From Lysinibacillus mangiferihumi (lineage in GTDB: Bacteria; Bacillota; Bacilli; Bacillales_A; Planococcaceae), in assembly GCF_003049665.1 (NCBI RefSeq), contig NZ_PYWM01000024.1, positions 1 to 64,000 on the forward strand: DNA of 64,000 nt, given 5' to 3'. Positions 1 to 14,145 of this stretch are shown piece after piece. The notes under the pieces are model-generated. The model saw only the letters and a program-made list of their open reading frames with translations, did not search any database and had not been told where the DNA came from. Position 1 is the stretch's first letter. Every line of letters begins with the position of its first letter. The position numbers and the translations under genes are program-made.

Positions 1-671
1 TTTGTTATATATGAAATTGGTGTGCTTATGATTGCTTGAAAGGGGAAAAAACTTGTTAACTCTTTTAACCAATGGGGATATAAAGCAACAGGAATAAAAA
101 TACCACCAAAAATAATTAATAAGGCATCATAAAACTCCATTATACCCCAATAATTACCTGTGAAAATTGCTAGATAACTTATTAATTGTAAAATTAAAAA
201 AGCTAAGATGTATGCATTTATATATGCTACCAAAAAAAGTAGCATTCTTTCAAATGTAATAATATTAAAATCTATTTGGAATAAAAACAATCTGCAAATT
301 AATAAAGAAGGTAGTGCCAAAAATATTATTCTATATAAAAGTGTACCTAATTCATTAGCCATATTTATTAGAAACAAAGAAATGGGTTTAATTAACAATA
401 CAGTAATTCTACCATCTATTATTTTTGTTGCTAAAAATTGTACTGTACTGTGGCTTGGTAATGTCCTCAAAAGAATTGGAGTTAATACCACGTATAAAAT
501 TACTTCTATATTATTAGAGACATTAGGATTTTCATTTTCTATATTTATCCATATAAAGTATTGAATTAATATAATAATCCCTATTCCTATTAATTGAAAT
601 AAGGTATTTAATCTATAGTAATATTGTGTTTTGAATGCAGCCAAAAAGTAGCCAGAAATACTTTTAATCAT
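1..671 (-). CDS. ABC-2 type exporter permease (3' end beyond window edge)
   Basis: The frame is open without a stop from an ATG at 671 down to base 1 (223 codons seen). The product is very hydrophobic, with several membrane spans starting around residue 24, and a GGIFIPVALYP stretch near residue 190 followed by a pre-membrane segment typical of ABC-2 permeases. Its ATG overlaps the stop of the ATPase gene upstream (ATGATTAA), which implies translational coupling. With that ATPase it most likely forms the exporter of the modified peptide encoded in this operon; it could also give self-immunity. Family assignment is by hydropathy and partner, so the precise subfamily is inferred. Confidence 0.85.
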   Translation of the reverse strand, partial: MIKSISGYFLAAFKTQYYYRLNTLFQLIGIGIIILIQYFIWINIENENPNVSNNIEVILYVVLTPILLRTLPSHSTVQFLATKIIDGRITVLLIKPISLFLINMANELGTLLYRIIFLALPSLLICRLFLFQIDFNIITFERMLLFLVAYINAYILAFLILQLISYLAIFTGNYWGIMEFYDALLIIFGGIFIPVALYPHWLKELTSFFPFQAIISTPISYIT

Positions 672-1644
672 ACGCCAGAACCTCAAGATTATTTTTTAGA
701 ATACTTTCTAAATCAAGTTCTTTAAAAATTAAAGTAGCTTCACTATCGATCATTCTTACTATATCTTTAACTTGTTCATCATTATACTTACTTGAATTAA
801 ATATATATTCTACAGCATTAATTCTTGTATCTACCTTTTTAAATGATTTCGGCATATTTAAATCTATATTTTTTTTTTGATTTGAAATAAGTACCGATCT
901 AAAACACTTAAATTCAGATAAAAATAAACTAGTTTTTCCATCATATTTCAAAATGCCCTGATCAATTAAAATAATTCGTTCACATACTTTTTCTATATCG
1001 TGTAAATCATGAGTGGTTAACATGATTGTAGTGTTTAAGTCTTTATTAATTTGAATAAGAAAATCCATCACATTTTTTTTAGTGCTGACATCTAATCCAA
1101 GAGTAGGTTCATCTAAATACACTAACTTTGGTTCATTAATAAAAGTAGCAACTAATTCTGCCCTCATCCTTTGTCCCAATGATAGTTGTCGGACAGGTTG
1201 TTTCAAATAATCAATATTAAGAAGGCTAATTAGATATTCTAACCACTGATCATTACTTTTAGTTTCAACATTATAAATTTTTTTTAAAATTTTAAATGAT
1301 TCAAACAATGGTAAATCCCACCATAAATTTGTTTTTTGTCCCATTAGTACGCCTGTGTATTTTGCAATTTTCATTCTTTTCTTAAAAGGGTTTTCATTAT
1401 TAATTACTACCTTTCCAGCTGTAGGTTCCATTAGCCCCGTTAATAATTTAATTGTAGTGGATTTTCCAGATCCATTGGGTCCAATATAACCTACAATTTC
1501 CCCTTTTTTTATGGTGAAATTTATATTTTGTAAAGCATCAACATACTTGTATCTAGGGTTTAAAAAATATTTTATTTTACTTTTCCATTCTTCCTCTCCA
1601 ATTCTAACTTTATATTTATGGTATATCCCCTCAACCTTTATCAT
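664..1644 (-). CDS. ABC transporter ATP-binding protein of a peptide exporter
   Basis: Cytoplasmic ATPase that powers the adjacent permease. Visible are Walker A (GPNGSGKST, about residues 55-63), the signature LSLGQRMRAEL, Walker B (LVYLDEPTLGLD) and the H-loop region (TTHDL). The long N-terminal stretch before the P-loop and the GQKTNLWWDLP segment in the Q-loop region are typical of the COG4586-type ATPases that work with ABC-2 permeases. An upstream ATG at 1662 gives a longer frame, but GGAGGGG sits 7 bases before the ATG at 1644, so I take 1644. The start overlaps the end of the protease gene by 14 bases, marking one operon. The exported product is inferred from the neighbours. Confidence 0.93.
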   Translation of the reverse strand: MIKVEGIYHKYKVRIGEEEWKSKIKYFLNPRYKYVDALQNINFTIKKGEIVGYIGPNGSGKSTTIKLLTGLMEPTAGKVVINNENPFKKRMKIAKYTGVLMGQKTNLWWDLPLFESFKILKKIYNVETKSNDQWLEYLISLLNIDYLKQPVRQLSLGQRMRAELVATFINEPKLVYLDEPTLGLDVSTKKNVMDFLIQINKDLNTTIMLTTHDLHDIEKVCERIILIDQGILKYDGKTSLFLSEFKCFRSVLISNQKKNIDLNMPKSFKKVDTRINAVEYIFNSSKYNDEQVKDIVRMIDSEATLIFKELDLESILKNNLEVLAYD

Positions 1645-2248
1645 TACTACCCCTCCATACACTTAGACAATTGTATATTTCCTCAATATATCGCAGCCTT
1701 CCCTTCGATACCAATCTACCTTGATTAATATCATATTTTTCGCCATAAACCTTAGTTGAAAAAACTTCAGCAAAATCATCGAAATGGTTTTCTGCTCCAT
1801 ACTCTGTCGTACCTGTATCATTTCCACTATCACCTACAGGGTAATAAGAAATTCCTTGTTTATTCTCTAAATAATAACTTCCTGTTTTTTCAAATAAGAT
1901 TTCAGATGCTTGAAAATTTAGTGCTGCATCATAAACATGTCCCATCTCATGTACAAAAGTTCCTTTTAAATAGTTCGATATATCATTGAATCTACCGCTA
2001 GAACCGTCTAAAGCAGAATTGAAAATAAATAAATAGATTATACTCTTATGAATGAAGGTGTATGCACTATCCATTCCACCATGGATTGGAACTTGTCTAA
2101 TAATTAACTTTAAATTCGACTCCTTTAGATGTTTTTCTAAATAAGAATCGAAATCTTTGAATACTTCATTAATATCATAAATTGCTTCAAGTAAAACTCC
2201 CTTTTCAAAGTAAGTAAAATTTGATTCAAAAATAATATCTGCTAACAT
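1631..2248 (-). CDS. HExxH zinc metalloprotease, candidate leader peptidase
   Basis: 205 residues with the zinc-binding motif HEMGH near residue 100 and a downstream segment YGAENHFDDFAEVF near residue 155 that can supply the third ligand. The spacing and the AE-FAE pattern resemble the lethal-factor-like (ATLF) metallopeptidase fold. There is no signal peptide or membrane span, so it probably acts in the cytoplasm. It sits between the radical SAM gene and the ABC genes, the usual place for the peptidase that removes a leader before export. AAGGAAA lies 7 bases before the ATG. Fold and role are inferred; the motif is seen. Confidence 0.8.
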   Translation of the reverse strand: MLADIIFESNFTYFEKGVLLEAIYDINEVFKDFDSYLEKHLKESNLKLIIRQVPIHGGMDSAYTFIHKSIIYLFIFNSALDGSSGRFNDISNYLKGTFVHEMGHVYDAALNFQASEILFEKTGSYYLENKQGISYYPVGDSGNDTGTTEYGAENHFDDFAEVFSTKVYGEKYDINQGRLVSKGRLRYIEEIYNCLSVWRGSNDKG

Positions 2249-2263
2249 TTTAGTATTTCCTTA

Positions 2264-3919
2264 TTAAAAAAACATTTGGTGTTCTTCAAGGCTTTTATCC
2301 ATGTAATCAAGTGCTTTTTTTCCGAAACGCAATTCAATTTCTCTATTAGTTTTTAATGCAGAATAAATATCGTATCGTTCATTTTTACAAGTAAGTTTTT
2401 GCACTTCGAGTTTTTCTTTAATTTTCTCTTTGTCATCATTATTAGATATATAAAATTCTGGATAATCAATTTTACATAATCTCGAAGCCCAGCATTTGCT
2501 ACAAGAACCTGAATTACAATATCCTTGGAAATTATCAATAATATTATTAATTCGTTCTTTACTAATTCCATATCTAAGATGACCTATTTTGTAATCTTCA
2601 TGTTGATGTTCATAACTAGAATATATTGTCCCATCTGCTCCAATAGTTGTTATATGCATTCCTGGTGCCTCGTCCATACCAATTAATTTATTTAAAGTTG
2701 ATTGTATAGTTTTAATTGGTCTCCATGTAACTGCCGAAAATGCTCTATGCAAAAAGTTAAACCCTGTTGAAAAGAAATAAAGAGACGAAGATTTTTTTTC
2801 TTCTTCTGAATAGGCATGCGTTTTCATAAATATTTTCCACAAATCATCTTTCGCTTCACATAGTTGTTCATAGTAATTAGAACCAATATCATTACCCGGC
2901 AATATCATATCAAAATCTAAATGTAAAGCTTGTGTTGCTGGTCCCCACTTTGTAAAAAAATCATATAGAAGAGGTATATTATATGGAGGGGTAATCACAC
3001 AAACTATTCCAAAATGGGTGCTATAATATTCAGGATATGTTTCACTTACCCATTTTAATTTTTTGCTGACTATATCTAACGTTCCATTCCCATATTTATC
3101 TAACCTATATTTATCATGGTTTGGGCCATCTATTGAAACATTAATATAAAAACCCTTGTACTGACAAAAGTCCATCATTCTTGAATTTATTAAAGTACCA
3201 TTAGTTGCAATTTGATACAGGATGTTATCAATATTAATCTTATACTTGATTGATATTTCATCAATATAATTCACAATATCTTTAATTAATTTAAAATTTA
3301 ATAAAGGTTCTCCACCAAAAAAGTAAACCGCTCTTTGCTTTTCAATATTATTATTAGATAAAATAAATTTCTTCACTATTGGTTTTAAATCTTCAATATT
3401 TGCTTTCAATTTTCTATGAACACGTGTATCTTTATAAGCGCCTCCAAAATAACAATAAGTGCAACGTATATTGCATTCCTCTGTCGTATTTATCAATAAA
3501 ACTTTCATTTCAAATTTCTCTATATTTCTTCTGAAATTAGGCTGTGTAAAAATATAACCTTCCCTATCAATGGGCGAAAACAAACCTTTTAATCTTTTGC
3601 AAGAAGTAACTATATCCGCTAGAGAACTTTCTTTAATATCTATTTTTTCTTTTAATGTGTACGGCTCTATGTCAAAACCGTATTCTAGAATTTGATATTC
3701 CAGATTATTTATCTCATGAATCATATTAGTAGATGTTATATAAACGAAGATTTTTTCATTAATTATGAATCTTTTGAATAGATGCAATTTATCATTTGAG
3801 ATAAATCCTGTAACTTCATTTTCCCCACGAAGTTTAATAGTGAATATAGCGTCACTTTGCTTTGTAAATATTGGAGAATCAATCTCCTTAATTTGAAGAA
3901 TTTGATTGTTATCTAACAT
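2264..3919 (-). CDS. Radical SAM/SPASM peptide-modifying enzyme
   Basis: 551 residues. An N-terminal region of about 140 residues precedes the radical SAM core, whose [4Fe-4S] motif is C149-x3-C153-x2-C156 (CNIRCTYC), followed by the GGEP-type SAM motif (FFGGEPLL). A C-terminal SPASM region (about 466-511) has six cysteines, including C468, C473, C476, C482 and C511, for auxiliary clusters. Such enzymes install crosslinks, epimerise or otherwise change residues of a RiPP precursor. The start codon touches the arginase stop (TAATG) and has a strong AGGAGG site. The exact chemistry cannot be read from sequence; thioether, cyclophane (three-residue) crosslink and epimerisation remain possible. 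Confidence 0.92.
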   Translation of the reverse strand: MLDNNQILQIKEIDSPIFTKQSDAIFTIKLRGENEVTGFISNDKLHLFKRFIINEKIFVYITSTNMIHEINNLEYQILEYGFDIEPYTLKEKIDIKESSLADIVTSCKRLKGLFSPIDREGYIFTQPNFRRNIEKFEMKVLLINTTEECNIRCTYCYFGGAYKDTRVHRKLKANIEDLKPIVKKFILSNNNIEKQRAVYFFGGEPLLNFKLIKDIVNYIDEISIKYKINIDNILYQIATNGTLINSRMMDFCQYKGFYINVSIDGPNHDKYRLDKYGNGTLDIVSKKLKWVSETYPEYYSTHFGIVCVITPPYNIPLLYDFFTKWGPATQALHLDFDMILPGNDIGSNYYEQLCEAKDDLWKIFMKTHAYSEEEKKSSSLYFFSTGFNFLHRAFSAVTWRPIKTIQSTLNKLIGMDEAPGMHITTIGADGTIYSSYEHQHEDYKIGHLRYGISKERINNIIDNFQGYCNSGSCSKCWASRLCKIDYPEFYISNNDDKEKIKEKLEVQKLTCKNERYDIYSALKTNREIELRFGKKALDYMDKSLEEHQMFF

Positions 3920-5058
3920 TAATTATTCCTCCGTATAATATTAGAAATAAATCTTAAAATTATATTACTAACCATAGTTGCTGTTAATTGAAAATTGGAA
4001 TTCAAGTTTGGAGAAAGCTCAACAAAGTCTACTCCTATCACCTTTACTGCATTTGCTATTTTCTCTAAAATAGCATTTAACTCTTTATCAGAAAATCCTT
4101 CTGGTACATAGGAGCCTGTATCAGGCATATATAGTGGGTCAAGGCAGTCGAAATCAATTGATACATAGTAAGGGTATGTTTTATCTAAGTTTTTAAGTAT
4201 CTCATCTATTTTCTCTACTGTATCTTCATATGAAAAGGTACTAACCTTATTATGAGTAGGAGGACGATTTGGATTTCTAACCCCTAATTGGATAACTTCT
4301 TTAACTCGATTAGTATTAATTAATCTATTAACAATATTATTATGTAACAGTTCATATGATTTAACCTCAGAAAAATCATCATGAGCGTCTAATTGAATTA
4401 CTCCAATTTTTTCATAGGGAATTGCTTCAATTATACTAGGAGTTATACTATGATCACCTCCTATAAAAACTGGTAACTTTGCCTTTTTAAAAATATAAGA
4501 AGCGGTATGTGAAATTTTAAACGCTGCATCTTCTCTAGATCCCGTATTTAAATCATATGGTTCTGCTACATTTCCAATATCCACAATTCTTTTTTTTACT
4601 ATTAAGTCACTCTTTTTTGTCCAATCAAAGAATCCTGTGACACACAAATTATCATCATATTCCCAATCGATTGGCCAAGAATACGCTCTTAACCATATAG
4701 GGCCGAATCTTGTACCCGGCGTTGTCACTATACCTAAATCGTAAGGTATTCCAATTATTGCAGAGTCAAACACTATTGTATTATTATAAAATTCATCAAG
4801 TGAATATATAGGAAGGTTAAAAAAACCTTGTTGGAAGTCATTATAAGACTTCCTTAGGAAGTCTCTAGGTTTTTCAAAGTCTATAAAGCCTTGTTCATTT
4901 AAATATTTTATATATTCAGATTCATTACCACTTTTTATATTATCGATTAATTGCTGTTTAGAGATATTTTCAAGTTTTATTATTTTTCCATTCTCAATAT
5001 TCCATAGTTTTAAGTAATTGAATTCTTCGATTACTAAAACTTCTTTTTTAAGAAACAA
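3919..5058 (-). CDS. Arginase-family enzyme, probable peptide arginase (Arg to Orn)
   Basis: 379 residues with a complete ureohydrolase manganese site: H203 (GGDHSI), D224, H226 and D228 (DAHDD), D302 and D304 (SIDFDCLDP). Free-arginine arginases and agmatinases are about 300 residues; this one has about 80 extra N-terminal residues that look like a small alpha/beta domain. Next to a radical SAM enzyme and a precursor peptide, the best model is a peptide arginase that turns arginine side chains into ornithine with urea release, as described for OspR in landornamide biosynthesis. The start is TTG at 5058 with AAGGAG/GAGG upstream. A free-agmatinase role is possible but the context argues against it. 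Confidence 0.88.
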   Translation of the reverse strand: MFLKKEVLVIEEFNYLKLWNIENGKIIKLENISKQQLIDNIKSGNESEYIKYLNEQGFIDFEKPRDFLRKSYNDFQQGFFNLPIYSLDEFYNNTIVFDSAIIGIPYDLGIVTTPGTRFGPIWLRAYSWPIDWEYDDNLCVTGFFDWTKKSDLIVKKRIVDIGNVAEPYDLNTGSREDAAFKISHTASYIFKKAKLPVFIGGDHSITPSIIEAIPYEKIGVIQLDAHDDFSEVKSYELLHNNIVNRLINTNRVKEVIQLGVRNPNRPPTHNKVSTFSYEDTVEKIDEILKNLDKTYPYYVSIDFDCLDPLYMPDTGSYVPEGFSDKELNAILEKIANAVKVIGVDFVELSPNLNSNFQLTATMVSNIILRFISNIIRRNN

Positions 5059-5095
5059 ATTCCTCGCTCCTTATAAAATTATTCATTAGCTAAAT

Positions 5096-5128
5096 AAAAA
5101 GCCACAATATATTTATCGCGGCTTTTTT
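5096..5128 (-). terminator. Hairpin with U-run after the precursor gene (partial terminator)
   Basis: On the minus strand a 12-bp stem (AAAAAGCCGCGA paired with TTGTGGCTTTTT, two G-U pairs) is followed by a T-rich stretch. It lies between the precursor gene and the arginase gene in one operon. Such hairpins often let the precursor transcript outnumber the enzyme transcript. Confidence 0.7.
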
Positions 5129-5153
5129 GTTTACATACTCACTTACTTAAATC

Positions 5154-5291
5154 TTAGTTGGTAGTAGGATTTGGACGAGTATGTCTTTTTGCAAAACCTG
5201 CTTTTGTTCTAAGTGAATCAGGTAATACTTTTCTTTTTACCTCCTCAACTTTCACTTCAAAATCTTTTGTTTTTTTAGACTCTTGTTTCAT
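5154..5291 (-). CDS. Candidate RiPP precursor peptide, 45 residues
   Basis: A short gene between the oxygenase and arginase genes. A near-perfect site (AAAGGAGGTGAG) stands just before its ATG. The product starts MKQESKKTKDFEVKVEEVKR, a charged leader-like part, and ends RTKAGFAKRHTRPNPTTN, a basic core-like part with three arginines (residues 28, 36 and 39), plus F33, H37 and N41. It has no cysteine, so lanthionine or thioether chemistry is excluded. The arginines suit the peptide arginase encoded downstream; F-A-K and H-T-R are spaced like three-residue cyclophane substrates. The leader/core border is unknown (near LPDSL is a guess). Identification rests on position, ribosome binding site and composition. 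Confidence 0.85.
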   Translation of the reverse strand: MKQESKKTKDFEVKVEEVKRKVLPDSLRTKAGFAKRHTRPNPTTN

Positions 5292-5325
5292 TCTACTCAC
5301 CTCCTTTCACGATATTTAGACTTAC

Positions 5326-6075
5326 TTATATCTTTTCCAATTCAAATCTTTCTATGAAATCTAGAATATTGTGTTTATTTACATAATTTTCAGTTAATGC
5401 TATTGTTAAATCATTATTTATTACTTGATGCCACCAACACGATGGTATGATTAATAAATCTCCTTCTTCTTGAACAACTCTTTCATAATTGAATTTAGGA
5501 AACATGCTCAATATAGTTTCATCAAATAAGTCTAGGTTTGGAAACCTCTTTTTAGCTTCTATAATTTTCTCACTCTCGTCTGGCGATAAAAAAATCCACT
5601 CTTTTTCACCTGATAGTAACGCATTCCAACCATGCGTATTGTCTATATCAATATGTAATGGACTTCCACTCCCTTTTGGTCCCACATATATCCAACTATA
5701 TTGTTTTTGTATTTTTGAACTGAAAAATTTTTGATTAAATAGATTAGTGATAAAATGAGGCTCATTATAATCATTAGATAACTCACTTGCTTCATACTGA
5801 AATTTCCAATTTAGATATAATTCAGGCATTGCCCTCTGATCAGCTGGAATCTCAGTAATATAACTAATATATTCTTTTAAACTTAGTTCATAAAATTGAT
5901 TATTATAGGATGCATCTACTGTATATTCACCATACTGTTTTTTAAAAAAATCAAGATTCCATTTCTTAAACGCTTCCCATTTTGATGCATAATTTTTAAC
6001 TAATAAAGGACGATTCATGTCTTCGAATTCACTTATATAGTCTATCTTTTCGATATCTTCCGTAATCCCTATCAT
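5326..6075 (-). CDS. JmjC/cupin-type Fe(II)/2-oxoglutarate oxygenase
   Basis: 249 residues. The iron triad is visible as H141-x-D143 (SPLHIDIDNTHGW) and H216 (SCWWHQVIN), embedded in the FIH/cupin_8 pattern, with a WIYVGPKGSGSPLH lead-in. This family hydroxylates side chains, mostly at the beta carbon of Asn, Asp, His or Arg in proteins. Here the likely target is the precursor peptide encoded 34 bases downstream. AAGGAGGT stands 8 bases before the ATG at 6075. The 5' end overlaps the previous gene by 47 bases. Target residue and reaction are inferred. Confidence 0.88.
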   Translation of the reverse strand: MIGITEDIEKIDYISEFEDMNRPLLVKNYASKWEAFKKWNLDFFKKQYGEYTVDASYNNQFYELSLKEYISYITEIPADQRAMPELYLNWKFQYEASELSNDYNEPHFITNLFNQKFFSSKIQKQYSWIYVGPKGSGSPLHIDIDNTHGWNALLSGEKEWIFLSPDESEKIIEAKKRFPNLDLFDETILSMFPKFNYERVVQEEGDLLIIPSCWWHQVINNDLTIALTENYVNKHNILDFIERFELEKI

Positions 6076-6403
6076 TTCTTATTACCTCCTTTTGATTAAA
6101 ATCTTCATCAAAAATACGAATGTTTTTTAAGCCTACAACTTCAAGTAAGTTATATATTGGATCCATTTTATAAATATAATTGTGTATTATACTATCAAGT
6201 CGTTTATACTCTCCGTTTATTTCTACGACACCCTTGAATTTAGTAAATCCAATATTATTTTTTAAATCAACCATTCCATTTCTAATAGCTATACCATACT
6301 TATCATTGCTCGCTACAAAGGAATCATTTATTGTTTTAAGATGATTAACTCCATCAGCAGTGCAAGTTACTACAGAGTATTCATTTTCAAAATCAACTTC
6401 CAT
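6029..6403 (-). CDS. Unknown protein, first gene of the RiPP operon
   Basis: At least 124 residues, no recognised domain, no membrane span, mixed alpha/beta composition. The ATG at 6403 has no good ribosome binding site, and the same frame continues upstream to a stop at 6491 with protein-like sequence. A well-placed AGAGGGTGG site and ATG at 6489 open a different frame that would join this one by a -1 shift at TTTAAAA (6478-6484). The true protein may therefore start at 6489 and be about 28 residues longer. Position first in the operon suggests a cluster-specific role (partner, immunity or substrate handling), which I cannot specify. Confidence 0.65.
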   Translation of the reverse strand: MEVDFENEYSVVTCTADGVNHLKTINDSFVASNDKYGIAIRNGMVDLKNNIGFTKFKGVVEINGEYKRLDSIIHNYIYKMDPIYNLLEVVGLKNIRIFDEDFNQKEVIRNDRDYGRYRKDRLYK

Positions 6404-6477
6404 TACATCTTTATTTACAAAAATGGTAGATTGATATTGGCCATGGCTTGGCTCAACCTTTAATACACCTCTATTAA

Positions 6478-6484
6478 TTTTAAA
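6478..6484 (-). other. Possible -1 frameshift heptamer or indel at gene start
   Basis: The minus strand reads T TTA AAA in the frame of the ATG at 6489, the canonical X XXY YYZ pattern. A -1 slip here joins MSLK to INRGVLKVEPSHG and the rest of the 6029-6403 frame; without it translation ends after 9 codons. A lost A in the run of four would have the same effect. Confidence 0.4.
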
Positions 6485-6530
6485 GACATTCTACCCACCC
6501 TCTTTGAAAATAAATGTTATTTTTACAGTC

Positions 6531-6559
6531 AGTATAAAATGCCTTTTGCAAGATGAAAA
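6531..6559 (-). promoter_or_regulatory. Predicted sigma-A promoter of the RiPP operon
   Basis: On the minus strand TTTTCA (6554-6559), a 17-base spacer and TATACT (6531-6536). The -10 matches 5 of 6 and the -35 matches 4 of 6. Transcription would start near 6524, about 35 bases before the ATG at 6489. Confidence 0.5.
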
Positions 6560-6669
6560 GTGTCTATTTTTTGAATATTTTGTGAACAGAAATGATATAT
6601 AAAATAATTTAACAATAAATAATATATACTATTTTTAAAAGTAATTTATTGTTTACAGGAGGTGATATC

Positions 6670-6825
6670 TTGAAAACGATTAATTATAAAAATCCTATTG
6701 TGGCAAGCTATCTATTTATCGGTGGAATATTTATAGTCTTAGGTTTTTCTCAAGGTTTAATCTTCTTTCTAATAGGGGCGCTTTCTGTTGTTGCTGGCAT
6801 TAAAGAAAATAAAAAGGTTTCTTAA
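6670..6825 (+). CDS. Small membrane protein, 51 residues
   Basis: TTG start preceded by a strong AGGAGGTGAT site at correct distance. The product begins MKTINYKNPIVASYLFIGG and is mostly two hydrophobic spans (about 12-28 and 30-43) ending in charged KENKKVS. It diverges from the RiPP operon. I do not recognise the family. Small membrane proteins beside such clusters can be immunity factors, but nothing in the sequence proves it. Confidence 0.6.
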   Translation: MKTINYKNPIVASYLFIGGIFIVLGFSQGLIFFLIGALSVVAGIKENKKVS

Positions 6826-6933
6826 TATTGCTGGAAATTAGCTTAAAGTTACTTTCTTATCCTCAAATCTAATTTTAATTTCATCTCTACTGTCGTACTT
6901 TTAAAAGCTGTTGCTATTTTCTGGTAGCCATTC

Positions 6934-7020
6934 GTTACAGACCTTGGGGTACCGGTAAAGGAAGATTTCATTCTATTAACACCTGATCAATCAGTACCCA
7001 ATGGCACAAAAATTAGTTAA
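6934..7020 (+). pseudogene. Possible C-terminal gene relic
   Basis: After an in-frame TAG the plus strand reads VTDLGVPVKEDFILLTP, then DQSVPNGTKIS and a TAA. The composition looks like a real protein end, but there is no start or upstream domain. I cannot name the parent family. Confidence 0.25.
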
Positions 7021-7173
7021 AGCACCCTATTTCCATTTTCACTGTCACTCTGCCATCCGTATAAAACATTTTATTTGATTGCACTGACAAATGGCTAAAG
7101 CTTGATAACTTCCTCTGCATATTAATAATAGTGTAAAGCTTAAAAAGCCTTTACAAAAACTCTCCTGTTTTGG

Positions 7174-7207
7174 GGTCACTTTCTTTAGGGAAGTGACTCT
7201 TTTCTAT
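7174..7207 (+). terminator. Rho-independent terminator
   Basis: GTCACTT pairs with AAGTGAC over a short loop, followed by a T-rich run (CTCTTTTCTATTTTT). It may end the transcript of the small membrane protein or of a lost gene. Confidence 0.6.
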
Positions 7208-7364
7208 TTTTAGAATGTTAAAAATCGCCCACAATAACGTACGCTTTTTTTGTTCATTTCAATTATTGATGAAGTTGTGATAGACTTGAAGTTTAGTGCC
7301 TAGAGACATCTACAATTATTTGACCAATATCAAGTGATCAATAATAGAAAAGGATGATAACCCA

Positions 7365-8321
7365 TTGATTAACGAACAACATACCAATAAATATATATAC
7401 ACATATGTCCATCATGTAGATGAATACGATTTATGTAGAATGGAGATGCGCTCTTTTTTCGGTGTAGATTCCTCATCATCAAACTATATGATAAGCAATC
7501 TAGAAGTTGACCCTAGTCGTAGTCCTTTTATACAAGATCGACTTGAAGTGCTGTTTGAAGACCATAGCATAGAAAATATAAAAAAATTAGTAAAGAATTT
7601 AATAGTAGGTGAAAAAACTTATAAGGTAGTTTGTTTAAATAATTTTGTTATAGGTCAAACAAAGAAAATTTCTCAGCCAGAGCGCCGAAGAATAGAACGC
7701 GAGCTAGGATTGTGTATCGAGGGAGACCCTGATCTAAATTATCCTGAAGTTATTTTTGGTCTTATTTTAATAGATGGAACATGGTATTTCGGTAAACATC
7801 TGAAAAGTGAGTCCATTTGGCGTAAACATTTACATAAACCAAATAGTTATTCAACAGCACTTAGTACAAGAGTTGCTCGCGCCGTTGCCAATATCGCCAT
7901 CCCTCAGCCACAAAATATTCGTGCTATTGACCCTTGCTGTGGTATAGGTACGGTAATAGTAGAAGCTCTTTCTATGGGTATTGATATTGAAGGAAGAGAT
8001 ATCAATCATTTTGTTTGTAGCGGTTCTCGCGAAAATATAGCCTATTTTGGTTTACAAGGAAAGATTACTTTAGGTCCCATTTCAGAAGTAACAGAACACT
8101 ATGATGTAGCTATTATTGATTTACCATATAATTTGTTTACGCATTCATCACGTGAAGATCAATATAATATACTTAAACATGCTCGTCGAATTGCGGATAG
8201 GGTAGTTGTCGTTACTATTGAAACAATTGATGATTTAATACATGATGCTGGTTTCACTATTGCCGATCGCTGCATTGCGAAAAAGCAGTCTTTCTTACGT
8301 CAGATTTTATTATGTCAATAA
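7365..8321 (+). CDS. Trm11/TrmG10-like SAM-dependent RNA methyltransferase
   Basis: 318 residues. The C-terminal half holds a Rossmann methyltransferase with the SAM motif DPCCGIGT (about residues 188-195), the acidic loop EGRDIN and the catalytic motif DLPYN (about 250-254), the NPPY/DPPY type used for N2-guanine methylation. This matches archaeal/eukaryal Trm11-like tRNA guanosine methyltransferases, which also occur in Bacillales. The N-terminal half could hold a THUMP-like RNA-binding region, but I cannot confirm it. The start is TTG with AAGGATG upstream. The substrate (tRNA) is inferred from the family. Confidence 0.82.
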   Translation: MINEQHTNKYIYTYVHHVDEYDLCRMEMRSFFGVDSSSSNYMISNLEVDPSRSPFIQDRLEVLFEDHSIENIKKLVKNLIVGEKTYKVVCLNNFVIGQTKKISQPERRRIERELGLCIEGDPDLNYPEVIFGLILIDGTWYFGKHLKSESIWRKHLHKPNSYSTALSTRVARAVANIAIPQPQNIRAIDPCCGIGTVIVEALSMGIDIEGRDINHFVCSGSRENIAYFGLQGKITLGPISEVTEHYDVAIIDLPYNLFTHSSREDQYNILKHARRIADRVVVVTIETIDDLIHDAGFTIADRCIAKKQSFLRQILLCQ

Positions 8322-8432
8322 GGTCTTCTCTATCACAATAAATAATTAATAACCCATTGGGGCTGATTGGAATTTATTTCATCGGCCTGAATGGGATTTC
8401 AAAATAAACATCCCAATAACCTATCAAGTAAA

Positions 8433-8464
8433 AAGCACCTATTAGTCCTCACTAATAGGTGCTT
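8433..8464. terminator. Bidirectional terminator between convergent genes
   Basis: A perfect 13-bp stem AAGCACCTATTAG / CTAATAGGTGCTT with a 6-base loop. On the minus strand it is followed by TTTTTACTT. It lies between the convergent methyltransferase and butanediol dehydrogenase genes. Confidence 0.85.
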
Positions 8465-8493
8465 GCTTGTTTACAATTTATTAAAAATAAGTA

Positions 8494-9543
8494 TTATTTC
8501 TCGCCGCTTAATTCTACTAAAATTTTCGCTTGTGATTTATCGTTTGTTAAAGCTTCAAAGCCTTTTTCAACGATATCATCTAATTGAATACGGCCAGTAA
8601 TAATTCCTTGAGGTTTTAATTGACCACTGCCCATTAAATCAACTGTTTGTTGGAATGATGTTGGTGTGTAAGCAATACTTGAAGTAATTTTCACACCTGT
8701 ATTTGTTAAATGAATTGGATTCCATTCAATTGGACGAGCAAAGATTGATACAATAACCATAGTACCACGAGCTCTTGTTGCATCGATTGCTTGTTTAAAT
8801 GTTGGCGCAACACCTGCAACTTCAAATGATACATCCACACCATCTGGAACGATTGCGCGAATTGCTTCTACACCATCTACTTCACCAGAGTTAATCACGT
8901 GCGTTGCACCAAGTTCTTTTGCTTTTTCAAGACGTGTTTCAGATAAATCTAATACGATAATTTTACTTGCACCAGCTGCTTTAGCTGCAATAGCCGTTAA
9001 TAAGCCGATTGGGCCAGCACCAAAAATCGCCACAGTATCACCGAAACGTAAATTACCCTCTTTTACAGCTTGTACTGCTACAGCTGTCGGTTCAACAAGT
9101 GCACCATCTTCAAGTGTCATTGTTTCAGGTAGTAAATAAACATTGCTTTCAGGAGCATTTGCATAAGTAGTGAAGCCACCATCGCCATGTAAACCGATGA
9201 AGCTAAAACCATCATAAGCGTCCATATCTTCAGGTTTGTTACCGTGCGTTAATGTTGGGTTAATTGCTACGCGATCACCCACTTTAAACTTAGTAACGTT
9301 TGCACCTACTTTTTCAATAGTTCCTGCAAATTCATGCCCCATAATCAGTGGAGCGATTTCACCAGTTAATTCATCTTTTTCTTTTGTTGGAATAAAGACA
9401 GGACCTTCTTGATATTCATGTAAATCACTACCACAAATACCAGCCCAAGCTACACGAACAGTAACCTCGTTATCTTTAAGAGCTTTTAATTCTCTGTCCT
9501 CAATACGAATGTCTTTTTCTCCGTACCAAACTGCTGCTTTCAT
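8494..9543 (-). CDS. bdhA: (R,R)-2,3-butanediol dehydrogenase (zinc-type MDR family)
   Basis: 349 residues of the medium-chain dehydrogenase family. Catalytic zinc ligands are in GICGSDLHEY and GHEFAGTIEKVG, and the NAD-binding glycine motif is GAGPIGLL. The insert before FSFIGLHGDGGFTTY and the ALVEPTAVA segment match Bacillus subtilis BdhA (YdjL), which interconverts acetoin and 2,3-butanediol. The structural-zinc cysteine cluster of liver ADH is absent, as is normal for this subfamily. It is a single gene with its own terminator. Sorbitol or threonine dehydrogenase activity is the main alternative. Confidence 0.9.
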   Translation of the reverse strand: MKAAVWYGEKDIRIEDRELKALKDNEVTVRVAWAGICGSDLHEYQEGPVFIPTKEKDELTGEIAPLIMGHEFAGTIEKVGANVTKFKVGDRVAINPTLTHGNKPEDMDAYDGFSFIGLHGDGGFTTYANAPESNVYLLPETMTLEDGALVEPTAVAVQAVKEGNLRFGDTVAIFGAGPIGLLTAIAAKAAGASKIIVLDLSETRLEKAKELGATHVINSGEVDGVEAIRAIVPDGVDVSFEVAGVAPTFKQAIDATRARGTMVIVSIFARPIEWNPIHLTNTGVKITSSIAYTPTSFQQTVDLMGSGQLKPQGIITGRIQLDDIVEKGFEALTNDKSQAKILVELSGEK

Positions 9544-10045
9544 AATGTCATAACCTCCGATGGAATTTATGTCTATTTGTTACACCTTCATTCTATCACT
9601 AAAATAAAATGATACAAATATAATGACTCAAAAAAATTATAGTAATACGATTATTTTAGTATACAACTAAACTAAAACAATATATTGATTCTCTAAAACA
9701 AATAACACTATATATTGTATATTATAAACTATGGTATTTCCTTTATAGAAATATACATATTTTATTAGTATATTAATAAACGTTTCAAATATTAAAAAGT
9801 TTGCTGTTTAATTAGGGTGCATTTTGCAGTGAAAAGAAGATTAACAATATGAATTGTTATTAAGCTAATCTTTTGGGCTTAAGGGAATTAAAAAATAATG
9901 TTATGATAATCGAGGATTTAAGAAATGTCGTTTCCATCATTGTCGGGAGCGTTGGAAAGAATGAACACTCTCTTTCGAAATCTCGAATGAGAACGACATG
10001 AAATGGGATAGTTTACAGAGGAATAAGAATGCAAAAAATGTTTTC
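9544..10045. other. AT-rich intergenic region
   Basis: Apart from the likely bdhA promoter region, I see only an imperfect inverted repeat near 9924-9990 (ATGTCGTT / GAACGACAT) around a short open stretch with two cysteines. No gene is supported. Confidence 0.5.
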
Positions 10046-10246
10046 CTAATTGTCTTGCTTCTCTTTATCTTTTTTTATTTTTATCATAATCAAGGTAATG
10101 ATGAAACCAACAAAAATAACAATCCAATTATCTATAGCAGAAAAAGAAAATATTTTAGATATTATAAAAAACCCTACTAAATATGCAGTAATTATAAATG
10201 AACCATAATCTGTAATAAACGAACCGAGATCTCTTCTTTTTTTCAT
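10046..10246 (-). CDS. Small two-span membrane protein
   Basis: 66 residues: basic start (MKKRRDLG), two hydrophobic spans (about 9-31 and 38-55) and a charged tail (KIKKDKEKQDN). AAAGGGAAG is near the expected position upstream. The opposite-strand open frame over the same bases is basic and aromatic without protein features, so I favour the minus strand. Family unknown. Confidence 0.55.
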   Translation of the reverse strand: MKKRRDLGSFITDYGSFIITAYLVGFFIISKIFSFSAIDNWIVIFVGFIITLIMIKIKKDKEKQDN

Positions 10247-10304
10247 AAGACTTCCCTTTCTTTAGTATCATTGCGTTGTAGTATATAAGAATAATTTTTC
10301 TATA

Positions 10305-10742
10305 TTACACCTCCATATTTGGCATTGTTATTCTCACAGCTAATTCTACTATTGGTTTTGAAAAAGTACTCGGAATCATCGGACTTGGTAAATCTCCATC
10401 ATGGTTTGCAAGTCCAAAAGATGCTTCTCCTACTTGAATCCAATCTAAGTCATCTGTACCTTGAATAACACCTATAAAATGATAATCTGCAGTATAAGTA
10501 TCAAAGCCGTCTTCATTCGGAATAGCTCTCCAAACTTCTGCCTCTTTTGTAGGATCAACTCCGAATTGTTCAAAGAATTTCAAAACTTCTGGACTCGTAT
10601 TTAGAATCTGCATCGCAAAAAGTTGACAATCCTCGCAACCACAATGAGCTTTTTCGGAAACTTTCGGCAAGTCTTTAAACAATTCAATCGTTTTTTCCTT
10701 GTCTATTTTTACAATACAATCATTTAATATAATTTCTTCCAT
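10305..10742 (-). CDS. Unknown cytosolic protein with CGCEDC motif
   Basis: 145 residues, soluble. A cysteine cluster CGCEDC near residue 34 could bind metal or form a disulfide. The rest is acidic with a WRAIPNEDGF segment and a hydrophobic core (DYHFIGVIQG). GAGGTG stands 5 bases before the ATG. It sits alone between the small membrane protein and the acylase gene. I do not recognise the family. Confidence 0.7.
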   Translation of the reverse strand: MEEIILNDCIVKIDKEKTIELFKDLPKVSEKAHCGCEDCQLFAMQILNTSPEVLKFFEQFGVDPTKEAEVWRAIPNEDGFDTYTADYHFIGVIQGTDDLDWIQVGEASFGLANHDGDLPSPMIPSTFSKPIVELAVRITMPNMEV

Positions 10743-10920
10743 AGTAACACCTCAATTATAAATTTTCATGTAAGCTACACCATATTACAAGCTTCAATGA
10801 TTAGATAAAGCAATACAAGAAAGTAACTTCCTATCTTTACAGTGATATAATTTCTAACAATGTATAAACATTCCACAAACCTTTTTAATTCTAATGACCT
10901 TGTGTATTTTAAGAAAAAGA

Positions 10921-10955
10921 GCCCCCGATTGTTCGTATATCTAACAATCGGGGGC
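10921..10955. terminator. Strong bidirectional terminator
   Basis: A perfect 13-bp stem GCCCCCGATTGTT / AACAATCGGGGGC with T-runs on both sides (TTTTTT on the plus strand, TCTTTTTCTT on the minus strand). It lies directly after the acylase gene, so it should end that transcript. Confidence 0.9.
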
Positions 10956-10991
10956 GTTTTTTAGTACTTTGTACTATATAATAGGCAATTT

Positions 10992-12613
<1,622 letters not shown>

Positions 12614-13243
12614 TTAAAACATTTCTAAGGATTTATCTCTTAAGAGACTCGTCAGCACAGTGCCCCACAAGAAAATTACTCCATAAAAGAGTCTTTGTAA
12701 TAAACCTGCTGGCAAAGGAAAGAAAAATAATAAAACTATTAGTATAAACAAAACTATAAGTATAAATAGAATAAAATAGGTCCACCGCTTCCCCTTAGTT
12801 AATGATTTTGCATAAATCCACAGTCCAAATAAAATGGTAATCATGCCGATTTGTGCTACTATAGAATGCCAAAATAAATCAATATCAGCCGGTATAAAAC
12901 CGGATACGATATTTCCTAAAGCAAAAATGAGAATAAATACTGTTGCCAATTTGTTTAACCAGTTCTTCTTTAGGTATTGTGAAAGATATAACACTCCTAT
13001 TGAAAATGTGAAGCCATTTACTATAAACAATACATTCATCCAAAAATGATAAGGGGAACAAATTTCGTGAGGGGCAATTGAATAAGTATACCTTCCACAT
13101 GATGTCACTCCTAAATCACTCATCGCTTGTTGCATAATATTATATGGTACATATGAAGTCATAATAAAAATCGGTTCTATTACAAAATATAAAATCGTAA
13201 CAACCCAACTTACTATTCCAACTTTTTTTGATATCTGTAACAA
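12614..13243 (-). CDS. DUF998 family membrane protein
   Basis: 209 residues with six predicted membrane spans. The segment QQAMSDLGVTSCG after the first span is the hallmark of DUF998 proteins, whose function is unknown. A short loop SIAPHEICSPYHFWMN links the first and second spans. One gene with its own terminator. Confidence 0.8.
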   Translation of the reverse strand: MLQISKKVGIVSWVVTILYFVIEPIFIMTSYVPYNIMQQAMSDLGVTSCGRYTYSIAPHEICSPYHFWMNVLFIVNGFTFSIGVLYLSQYLKKNWLNKLATVFILIFALGNIVSGFIPADIDLFWHSIVAQIGMITILFGLWIYAKSLTKGKRWTYFILFILIVLFILIVLLFFFPLPAGLLQRLFYGVIFLWGTVLTSLLRDKSLEMF

Positions 13244-13695
13244 AATTTATCCCCCTTTATATAATTATATACATAATCACGAAATAAATTGCCCATTGAA
13301 TAATCGTAAATGAGAGACTTCACTTTGAACAATTTGATTACTCAATTAAACAGTTTATATTTATCAAAAATAGCATATCAAAGATTTTACCCTTGTATAT
13401 ATAGATATGCTAATAAACCCCCAGATTTTAGACTTATGTTTGATTATGATAAATAAACACAAAAAGCCAAAGCTTAAAATTAATTGAGTACCTGGACTTT
13501 AAAATTAACGAATTACAACATTTGCAAAATATAAAATAACAAGCATGTTAAGAAGTAATAGTGAAAACAACAATCTGTTATACTTTCACTTTTTTTTTAC
13601 CTTTAAGATTTATGTTATAAGTGAATTATGGAATTTAAATTAAATTTACTAAGCAAAATAGTAAACAAAAAAATAATTTATCGGGGGAAATGATA
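13244..13695. other. AT-rich intergenic region with a repeat copy
   Basis: No gene. It contains a decayed copy of the terminator-like repeat (AAAATTAATTGAGTACCTGG at 13476-13495) and the ribosome site GGGGG before the acetyltransferase gene. Confidence 0.5.
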
Positions 13696-14145
13696 ATGTT
13701 AATGAGAAGTGCAAAAGTAAAAGATTGTAACATTTTAAGCAACTTAGCCTATAAGTCAAAAGCCTACTGGGGATATACAGAAGATTTTCTACAACAATGT
13801 AAAAATGATTTGACTGTGACTAAAGACTACATAGAAGAAAATCCAGTTTATTTGATGATGGAGAGTGATAACAAGATAGTAGCATTTTATAGCTTTACAA
13901 TTAATGATCGAAAATTAGATGCATTATTTATAGATCCTGATTTTATCGGTCAAGGCTTAGGTCGAATAATTTGGGACCATGTATTAAATAAAGCAGAAGA
14001 GTTGGGAATAAACGAATTTACTCTTGATAGTGAACCGAATGCAGAAGGTTTTTATTTAAAGATGGGAGCAAAGAACATTGGCTCTACTCCATCTACAGTG
14101 TTCCCTGACCGTCACCTTCCTCTAATGAAAGTTAAAGTGTTTTAA
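13696..14145 (+). CDS. GNAT family N-acetyltransferase
   Basis: 149 residues. The acetyl-CoA loop is visible as PDFIGQGLGRIIW (GxGxG/A pattern), preceded by the LDALFID strand and followed by the FYLKMGAKNIGS motif typical of GNAT C-termini. The ATG at 13690 is only 3 bases from the GGGGG site; that at 13696 is better placed. Substrate unknown. Its own terminator follows at 14167-14192. Confidence 0.85.
   Translation: MLMRSAKVKDCNILSNLAYKSKAYWGYTEDFLQQCKNDLTVTKDYIEENPVYLMMESDNKIVAFYSFTINDRKLDALFIDPDFIGQGLGRIIWDHVLNKAEELGINEFTLDSEPNAEGFYLKMGAKNIGSTPSTVFPDRHLPLMKVKVF

What the first reader, a model, noticed from the sequence alone, without database searches (positions are those of the whole stretch)
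1..6560. RiPP operon combining peptide arginase, radical SAM/SPASM, JmjC oxygenase, ATLF-like protease and ABC exporter
Seen: one tightly coupled minus-strand set with a 45-residue precursor candidate, an arginase-fold enzyme with all six metal ligands, a radical SAM/SPASM enzyme, an HxD...H oxygenase, an HExxH protease and an ABC pair. Known: peptide arginases (OspR type) make ornithine in RiPPs, and JmjC-like enzymes hydroxylate peptide side chains. Inference: the product would be a hydroxylated, ornithine-containing and radical-modified peptide. I know of no described pathway with this exact set.
Basis: partly seen in the sequence, partly recalled or inferred. Interest (0 to 1): 0.92.

Follow-up and report, generated by a model that had tools for sequence, protein, structure and literature searches.

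The report
Rare arginase and radical-SAM peptide pathway
A bacterial gene set that probably builds a small, heavily modified peptide from a 45-residue precursor; related gene sets in Streptomyces and Brevibacterium point to a peptide family for which we found no description, made with an unusual iron-sulfur enzyme.

Summary
In detail: minus-strand JmjC, 45-aa ORF, PF00491 arginase, radical SAM, HExxH and ABC genes. Base 1 is a contig end; another contig of the same genome overlaps it by 51 identical bases and carries the rest of permease 1, permease 2 and a full-length LanB.

Six actinobacterial loci (five of the Streptomyces group, one Brevibacterium) carry related clusters: rSAM in one 100/100 clade with the window's, arginase, homologous JmjC, and a short ORF sharing R-x-x-A-x-F-A-K-x-H-x-R. 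An HMM of the six ranks the window ORF first of 1768 segments, E 2e-4.

The 7 precursors lack Cys, Trp and Tyr. The 7 rSAMs lack the SPASM CX9-15GX4C motif but keep CX2CX5CX28C; 14 of 15 other rSAMs have it.

Corrections: the arginase is not OspR-type; the ATLF label is unsupported; the first small ORF looks like a methyltransferase remnant. Biphenomycin already combines arginase, JmjC ornithine hydroxylase and rSAM, with other enzyme families. Verdict: an apparently undescribed RiPP family; its chemistry is inferred.

The parts
5154..5291 (-). 45-aa precursor ORF; core positions R28, A31, F33, A34, K35, H37, R39 shared with six actinobacterial precursors
   Evidence: RBS and ATG; HMM rank 1 of 1768, E 2e-4; alignment
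5088..5132 (-). terminator-like hairpin with U tract directly after the precursor gene, between it and the arginase gene
   Evidence: fold -16.6 kcal/mol, z -5.5, 0 of 200 shuffles as stable; the consensus scan did not list it
5326..6075 (-). JMJD6-like JmjC/Cupin_8 oxygenase, HxD at 141-143 and distal His 216
   Evidence: Pfam; phmmer JMJD6 1.3e-26; motifs; homologues in 6 of 6 actinobacterial loci, 31-35% over about 125 aa
3919..5058 (-). PF00491 arginase with about 75-95 N-terminal residues matched neither by Pfam nor by the actinobacterial arginases
   Evidence: Pfam 1.7e-47 from residue 98; ligands invariant
2264..3919 (-). radical SAM enzyme; keeps CX3CX2C and CX2CX5CX28C, lacks CX9-15GX4C
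1631..2248 (-). HExxH protein (HEMGH at residue 100); putative leader peptidase, or alpha-KG HExxH oxygenase
   Evidence: motif; only sub-threshold family hits; no relative in plasmids, viral contigs or the six actinobacterial loci; genome collections not searched with it
664..1644 (-). ABC exporter ATPase
   Evidence: Pfam 3.6e-28; 34-36% to the ATPase of 5 of 6 actinobacterial loci
3..686 (-). ABC permease 1, cut by the contig end; its last residues, permease 2 and LanB lie on contig C138 (L049 19829-19996, 19039-19839 and 15923-18997, all - strand)
   Evidence: 51-base exact overlap; Pfam ABC2_membrane_6 5.5e-45, Lant_dehydr_N 8.9e-120, Lant_dehydr_C 6.3e-46
6029..6403 (-). 124-aa ORF resembling only the C-terminal part of a class I methyltransferase; probably a truncated remnant
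   Evidence: 39% over 76 aa to residues 156-231 of a plasmid methyltransferase

Best explanation
The operon makes a RiPP from the 45-aa peptide. Shown by sequence: a conserved precursor core (R-x-x-A-x-F-A-K-x-H-x-R), an arginase, a clade-specific rSAM, a JmjC oxygenase and an ABC exporter form a core shared with Streptomyces; LanB and the HExxH protein are extra in this genome. Inferred: leader-bound precursor is acted on by the rSAM, which, with no Cys in the substrate, makes a non-thioether bond, most likely a C-C link between the aromatic side chains F33/H37 and the residues two on, K35/R39 (two tandem aromatic-x-x units, F-A-K and H-x-R). The arginase turns a conserved Arg (R39 rather than R28) into ornithine. 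The JmjC enzyme hydroxylates that Orn or K35, as BipG/PbsQ do for Orn. LanB dehydrates Thr/Ser (T29, T38, T43, T44 or S26), giving dehydroamino acids that cannot become lanthionines without Cys. The HExxH protein removes the leader and the ABC exporter secretes the product. The hairpin after the precursor gene would keep precursor mRNA in excess of enzyme mRNA.
For: Gene set and order. Six homologous loci with precursor, arginase, rSAM, JmjC, JmjC_2, aldo/keto reductase and PhyH genes, 5 of 6 with the same ABC exporter. rSAM clade 100/100 against 15 other rSAMs. Precursor HMM and shuffle tests. 0 of 7 precursors contain Cys, Trp or Tyr. Arginase ligands. JMJD6 similarity 1.3e-26. LanB full length beyond the contig end. 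Hairpin. Precedent for arginase, Orn hydroxylase and rSAM on one peptide: PMC12707348, PMC12257519 (passages).
Against: No product is known. The window arginase does not group with the actinobacterial arginases (weak forks, 73/78) and is no closer to them than to ordinary agmatinases, so it may have been recruited separately. LanB and the HExxH protein have no match in the six actinobacterial loci (20 kb or less each), and JmjC_2, aldo/keto reductase and PhyH have none in the window or the neighbouring 20 kb of C138; Thr positions of the cores differ. The precursor similarity is short: 2 of 6 by plain tblastn at E<=0.01. By NCBIfam the rSAM scores best against a Cys-rich-peptide maturase (CcpM 159 bits against a cut-off of 500), above the cyclophane models. 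No fold could be computed. The contig join rests on a 51-base overlap and gene order.
Confidence: 0.72

Rival explanations
1. A variant of the biphenomycin or enteropeptin pathway: the same product class, reached with diverged enzymes.
For: Same reaction logic: arginase, JmjC hydroxylase, rSAM, metalloprotease; PF00491 arginase as in KgrD.
Against: No Cys in the core (needed for the enteropeptin thiomorpholine) and no F-R-F (biphenomycin); no MNIO or B12-binding domain in the Pfam scans of the operon genes; the arginase is not UPF0489.
Confidence: 0.08
2. The rSAM does not cross-link but epimerises or oxidises residues; the aldo/keto reductase of the actinobacterial loci would reduce a carbonyl made that way.
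For: An aldo/keto reductase gene sits in 6 of 6 actinobacterial loci (Pfam checked for two of them); the rSAM has lost one auxiliary-cluster motif, so its redox balance may differ.
Against: No reductase match in the window or the neighbouring 20 kb of C138. The F-A-K-x-H-x-R spacing is invariant in 7 of 7 while the residues between vary, which fits a geometric link better than single-residue chemistry; but several of the seven ORFs were found by motif.
Confidence: 0.3
3. The HExxH protein is an alpha-ketoglutarate oxygenase that beta-hydroxylates the modified core, not a protease.
For: HExxH oxygenases occur in RiPP pathways: ChlH, which needs a preinstalled cyclophane, and BipH of biphenomycin (passages of PMC12636437 and PMC12707348).
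Against: Its only, sub-threshold, family hits of E<=0.1 are hydrolase-type (E 0.02-0.025); the operon has no other peptidase candidate.
Confidence: 0.25
4. Chance neighbourhood: a modified cellular protein, not the 45-aa ORF, is the substrate.
For: The enzyme families also act on proteins or small molecules (JMJD6, agmatinase relatives).
Against: Short ORF conserved in 7 of 7 clusters, two phyla apart.
Confidence: 0.05

Closest known systems
Biphenomycin / pbs pathway (BipA-I, PbsA-Q)
   Same: RiPP with arginase, JmjC/cupin ornithine hydroxylase, rSAM C-C linkage and metalloprotease; found in Streptomyces and in Peribacillus.
   Different: UPF0489 arginase, B12-rSAM, MNIO and TldD protease; precursor core F-R-F. 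Here: PF00491 arginase, SPASM-type rSAM without the AuxI motif, HExxH protein, LanB; core F-A-K-x-H-x-R. Whether the two JmjC enzymes are close kin was not tested.
Enteropeptin pathway (KgrD)
   Same: PF00491 arginase in a Bacilli RiPP (PMC12703449); its rSAM is recalled.
   Different: Enteropeptin needs a Cys thiomorpholine and an Fe-S methyltransferase; this precursor has no Cys.
Landornamide and OspR-type peptide arginases
   Same: Arg-to-Orn in a RiPP core (here inferred).
   Different: OspR-type are pfam12640; the window enzyme has no hit to it and lacks its two specific motifs.
CcpM / SCIFF / PapB rSAM-SPASM maturases
   Same: Best sequence relatives of the rSAM (CcpM 159 bits; PDB 5wgg, recalled as the SCIFF maturase CteB, 3.3e-22).
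   Different: Scores far under the curated cut-offs; substrate without Cys; AuxI motif missing.
JmjC_2/Cupin_4 oxygenases (ROX-like, recalled)
   Same: A JmjC_2 gene next to the precursor in the six actinobacterial relatives.
   Different: No match in the window or the neighbouring 20 kb of C138.

Membership tests
RiPP biosynthetic gene cluster | Short precursor gene conserved beside modifying enzymes | tested here: met
   7 of 7 clusters, HMM E 2e-4, 0 of 5000 shuffles
RiPP biosynthetic gene cluster | The peptide is modified and released | not testable with these tools
   needs co-expression and mass spectrometry
[quoted passage not shown]
   PF00491 is the only Pfam hit at E<=1; EEH and LDIDLDY absent. 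A DxHxD stretch is present, as in other ureohydrolases
PF00491 ureohydrolase | Six metal ligands | tested here: met
   H203, D224, H226, D228, D302, D304 invariant; Pfam 1.7e-47
SPASM radical SAM | CX3CX2C | tested here: met
   7 of 7
SPASM radical SAM | CX9-15GX4C (AuxI half; assignment recalled) | tested here: not met
   0 of 7; 14 of 15 other rSAMs have it, the miss (L017) is cut by its locus end; L031 was not tested, its locus being short
SPASM radical SAM | CX2CX5C plus distal Cys (AuxII half; assignment recalled) | tested here: met
   7 of 7
Sactipeptide / ranthipeptide | Cys in the precursor | tested here: not met
   0 of 7 precursors
Lanthipeptide class I | LanB dehydratase | tested here: met
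   1024 aa, both Pfam halves, on the overlapping contig
Lanthipeptide class I | Cys in the core | tested here: not met
   no Cys in the precursor
Lanthipeptide class I | LanC cyclase | not tested
   none noticed by eye among the ORFs; no profile scan or genome search for LanC was made
Anthrax-toxin-lethal-factor-like (ATLF) peptidase | Match to the ATLF profile | tested here: not met
   no ATLF hit at E<=1 in Pfam
JmjC oxygenase | HxD...H and JmjC profile | tested here: met
RRE-containing maturase | PqqD-like domain on arginase or rSAM | tested here: inconclusive
   no PqqD hit at E<=1; hhalign of the arginase N-terminus with other candidates at most 8.7%; no structure available

The most novel reading that the evidence does not exclude
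A RiPP class found in two phyla in which an AuxI-less (AuxII-only) SPASM-type radical SAM enzyme builds one or two aromatic-x-x cross-links in F-A-K-x-H-x-R, next to arginase-made and JmjC-hydroxylated ornithine; in the Bacilli member LanB adds dehydroamino acids to the same peptide. The enzyme would be a natural test of what the AuxII cluster, whose role was called unclear in a 2021 review, does without AuxI.
Probability: 0.3. Interest if true: 0.85.

Novelty: new variant of a known kind. Interest (0 to 1): 0.62.

Why it matters
It defines a small precursor and enzyme family for which my searches found no paper and no Pfam or NCBIfam precursor model, spanning Streptomyces, Brevibacterium and a Bacilli genome, so that the core residues can be mutated one by one. 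It shows arginase plus JmjC plus rSAM assembled from enzyme families other than those of biphenomycin, which suggests convergent use of modified ornithine. The rSAM clade has lost one of the two auxiliary-cluster motifs of SPASM domains; since AuxI is the cluster seen to accept an electron in SuiB and the role of AuxII is called unclear (PMC9012708 passages), these enzymes offer a direct test of that open question.

Tried and rejected
Orthologues of the window rSAM in Bacillota: genus, 2 of 32 at E<=1e-20, the own genome and G002, whose partial 32% hit falls outside the clade in the tree; order 1 of 261 (1e-30), class 1 of 398 (1e-25), phylum 1 of 149 (1e-35), each the own genome. The precursor as query: 1 of 398 (own). 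Single-protein scans of genome contigs (rSAM) and viral contigs (arginase, HExxH): none; a related rSAM pattern in viral contigs gave one locus, L016, outside the clade. Plasmid tblastn: window rSAM none at 1e-20; at 1e-8, 66 records, 3 of them covering at least 80% of the query, the listed ones with about 80% cover at 21-24% identity; HExxH none at 0.01; Streptomyces rSAM none at 1e-40.

Considered and rejected: OspR-type arginase; ATLF label; sactipeptide; lanthipeptide with rings; the 124-aa ORF as a second precursor (it matches a methyltransferase tail). RRE domains by hhalign: inconclusive. The arginase tree left the window enzyme unplaced. The window ORF has one sub-threshold Pfam hit (Phage-scaffold, E 0.015, 15.1 bits against 25), taken as chance.

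Caveats on counts: the short ORFs of L018, L022 and L023 were found by a motif search of all frames, those of L019 and L025 first by tblastn with the window peptide; that of L044 (the genome of L019) was pulled by a motif string; that of L047 appeared in a gene call without a motif filter. 13 of the 18 pattern loci show no arginase, JmjC or precursor match at 0.01 (loci of 8 kb or less). The 15 comparison rSAMs are 12 of those 13 (L031 left out as short) plus L003, L016 and L035. The Streptomyces tally of 3 of 199 includes the centre genome and one already known; the Actinomycetota tally of 1 of 149 is the centre itself. The gene calls are crude; names rest.

Papers: PMC12703449, first two of five parts read; passages only of PMC12707348, PMC12257519, PMC12710340, PMC12636437, PMC9012708; all others as search listings. 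In one search, 69 papers hold the letters 'fakth' somewhere; 20 were listed, all off topic by title, and none of these holds the longer motifs. That the family is not in print rests on these searches of an open-access library only. The meaning of the SPASM AuxI/AuxII motifs and of aromatic-x-x cyclophanes is partly recalled.
Full report
What is there. The minus strand of 1-6560 carries, in order of transcription: a 124-aa ORF (6403-6029), a JmjC/Cupin_8 oxygenase (6075-5326), a 45-aa ORF (5291-5154), an arginase (5058-3919), a radical SAM enzyme (3919-2264), an HExxH protein (2248-1631), an ABC ATPase (1644-664) and an ABC permease (686-3). Four neighbouring pairs overlap. The 45-aa ORF has a strong ribosome-binding site and is followed by a very stable hairpin with a U tract (-16.6 kcal/mol, z -5.5), as is common where a RiPP precursor must outnumber its enzymes (inference). 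G+C of the operon is 28.5% against 34.3% and 38.3% in two longer stretches of the window, and no other of 32 same-genus genomes has the rSAM (G002 has a partial match to another family), so it was probably acquired.

The operon is longer than the window shows. Base 1 is the end of contig C59. A second permease, 34% identical to the one in a Streptomyces relative, lies at the end of contig C138 of the same genome, and the two contig ends share 51 identical bases. C138 supplies the last residues of permease 1, then permease 2 and, 41 bases on and in the same direction, a 1024-aa LanB with both dehydratase halves (PF04738 8.9e-120, PF14028 6.3e-46). After LanB comes an IS66 remnant.

The relatives. 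A DNA pattern for the rSAM motif C-N-x-R-C-x-Y-C-x-[FY]-G-G-x-Y (exact matches) found 18 places in a collection of 84,980 species genomes. Five of them, in Brevibacterium sandarakinum, S. melanogenes, [Kitasatospora] papulosa and Streptomyces SBT349 and ISL-43, match the window rSAM over nearly its whole length (31-33%, E 1e-85 to 1e-109; ISL-43 cut by its locus) and have an arginase next to it; the other 13 show no arginase, JmjC or precursor match. A sixth, L047, turned up among 199 sampled genomes of the S. melanogenes genus (3 of 199 with the rSAM, two of these already known). All six loci carry precursor, JmjC_2 oxygenase, arginase, rSAM, a homologue of the window's JmjC, aldo/keto reductase and a PhyH-type dioxygenase; five have the same ABC exporter, Brevibacterium an MFS transporter. 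The window's LanB, HExxH protein and 124-aa ORF have no match in the six, and JmjC_2, reductase and PhyH none in the window or the neighbouring 20 kb of C138. The rSAMs of the window and these six form a clade with 100/100 support against 15 others.

The precursor. The six actinobacterial short ORFs share a leader (F-P-E-[VL]-x-V-x-V-S) and the core R-[AS]-R-A-T-F-A-K-T-H-[AN]-R; the window ORF keeps R28, A31, F33, A34, K35, H37 and R39. An HMM made from the six, without the window, ranks the window ORF first among 1768 translated segments of the window (E 2e-4; the next is 0.6), and no shuffle of its letters comes near (0 of 5000). Plain tblastn is weaker: 2 of 6 at E<=0.01. No precursor contains Cys, Trp or Tyr (7 of 7). 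Pfam and NCBIfam have no model above cut-off for the window ORF or for the two actinobacterial precursors scanned.

The radical SAM enzyme. All seven keep CX3CX2C and CX2CX5CX28C. None has CX9-15GX4C, the motif of one auxiliary cluster of SPASM domains, against 14 of 15 other rSAMs; the exception is cut off by its locus end. In an alignment with ten of these others, the Cys of GX4C and the Cys that follows CX2CX5C after two or three residues are present in 10 of 10, and replaced by Ser and by Thr or Asp in the seven. A 2021 review says SPASM domains typically bind two auxiliary clusters, that AuxI was seen to accept an electron in SuiB and that the role of AuxII is unclear (passages of PMC9012708). 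A natural enzyme with the AuxII motif alone is therefore useful. That the cluster itself is missing is inferred from sequence, and which motif serves which cluster is recalled.

The other enzymes. The arginase has all six ligands but is PF00491, the family of KgrD in enteropeptins, not pfam12640 of OspR (PMC12703449; tests). Its tree position is unresolved, and it is not clearly sister to the actinobacterial arginases. The JmjC enzyme is most like JMJD6, deposited as an arginine demethylase and lysyl hydroxylase, among solved structures (1.3e-26). The HExxH protein has no confident family; the ATLF reading is not supported, and an alpha-ketoglutarate HExxH oxygenase is possible (PMC12636437 passages). 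The 124-aa ORF matches only the tail of a methyltransferase on a Lactiplantibacillus plasmid and lacks its methyltransferase domain: probably a remnant.

How it probably works. Without Cys the rSAM cannot make thioethers in this substrate. The invariant spacing F-A-K-x-H-x-R offers two aromatic-x-x units, which is the geometry of three-residue cyclophanes (recalled), so C-C links F33-K35 and H37-R39 are my first guess (about 0.35); epimerisation or oxidation is the main rival. The arginase then gives Orn, most likely at R39, and the JmjC enzyme hydroxylates it or K35, as PbsQ/BipG do to Orn in biphenomycin. LanB would dehydrate Thr/Ser in this genome's member. HExxH cleavage and ABC export finish the path. 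Everything in this paragraph is inference from family knowledge.

What is new. The precursor family, the rSAM clade without the AuxI motif, the PF00491 arginase in this setting and the addition of LanB were not found in eight searches of an open-access library (search 108 asked about auxiliary clusters). I file it as a new variant of a known kind (RiPP), possibly its own class once the chemistry is known.

Noticed in passing
L049 (own genome, contig C138) 5463-10751, - strand: A second cluster about 5 kb beyond LanB: ThiF (in two frames here), an SBP-like protein, an M3/PepF-like peptidase and an MFS transporter, G+C 27.6%. It is homologous to genes on Staphylococcus aureus plasmid pC205_2 (L013), where a JmjC gene lies beside it, and by annotation its order resembles Lactiplantibacillus plantarum pLL441-1 (L051), where a methyltransferase follows.
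   Followed up: partly
L011 (Mammaliicoccus sciuri pWHA07) 6619-13846: An arginase-family gene with an extended N-terminus sits between two genes annotated hypothetical, followed by a PLP enzyme, an ABC pair and a GNAT gene; possibly another arginase-based pathway.
   Followed up: no
L012 (Macrococcus armenti pJEK46-1) 6668-10777: ThiF, arginase-family, isochorismatase-like and a hypothetical, hydrophobic protein gene in a row on a plasmid.
   Followed up: no
L014 (Nostoc plasmid pn1) 7881-8600: A JmjC-like stretch 32% identical to the window's lies among reading frames that look NRPS-like by eye.
   Followed up: no
window 28000-57500: A long run of mostly minus-strand ORFs that looks like a prophage by layout; G+C 38.3%; no megablast match of 29000-50000 in the phage collection. 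Not otherwise tested.
   Followed up: no
L042-L047, JmjC_2 gene next to the precursor: The JmjC_2 protein of L025/L042 ends in a winged-helix-like domain (HTH_IclR just above cut-off), which could be a RiPP recognition element; the Brevibacterium one gave no such hit at 0.001. A 2025 paper reports RRE-like domains fused to PF08007 (passage).
   Followed up: partly
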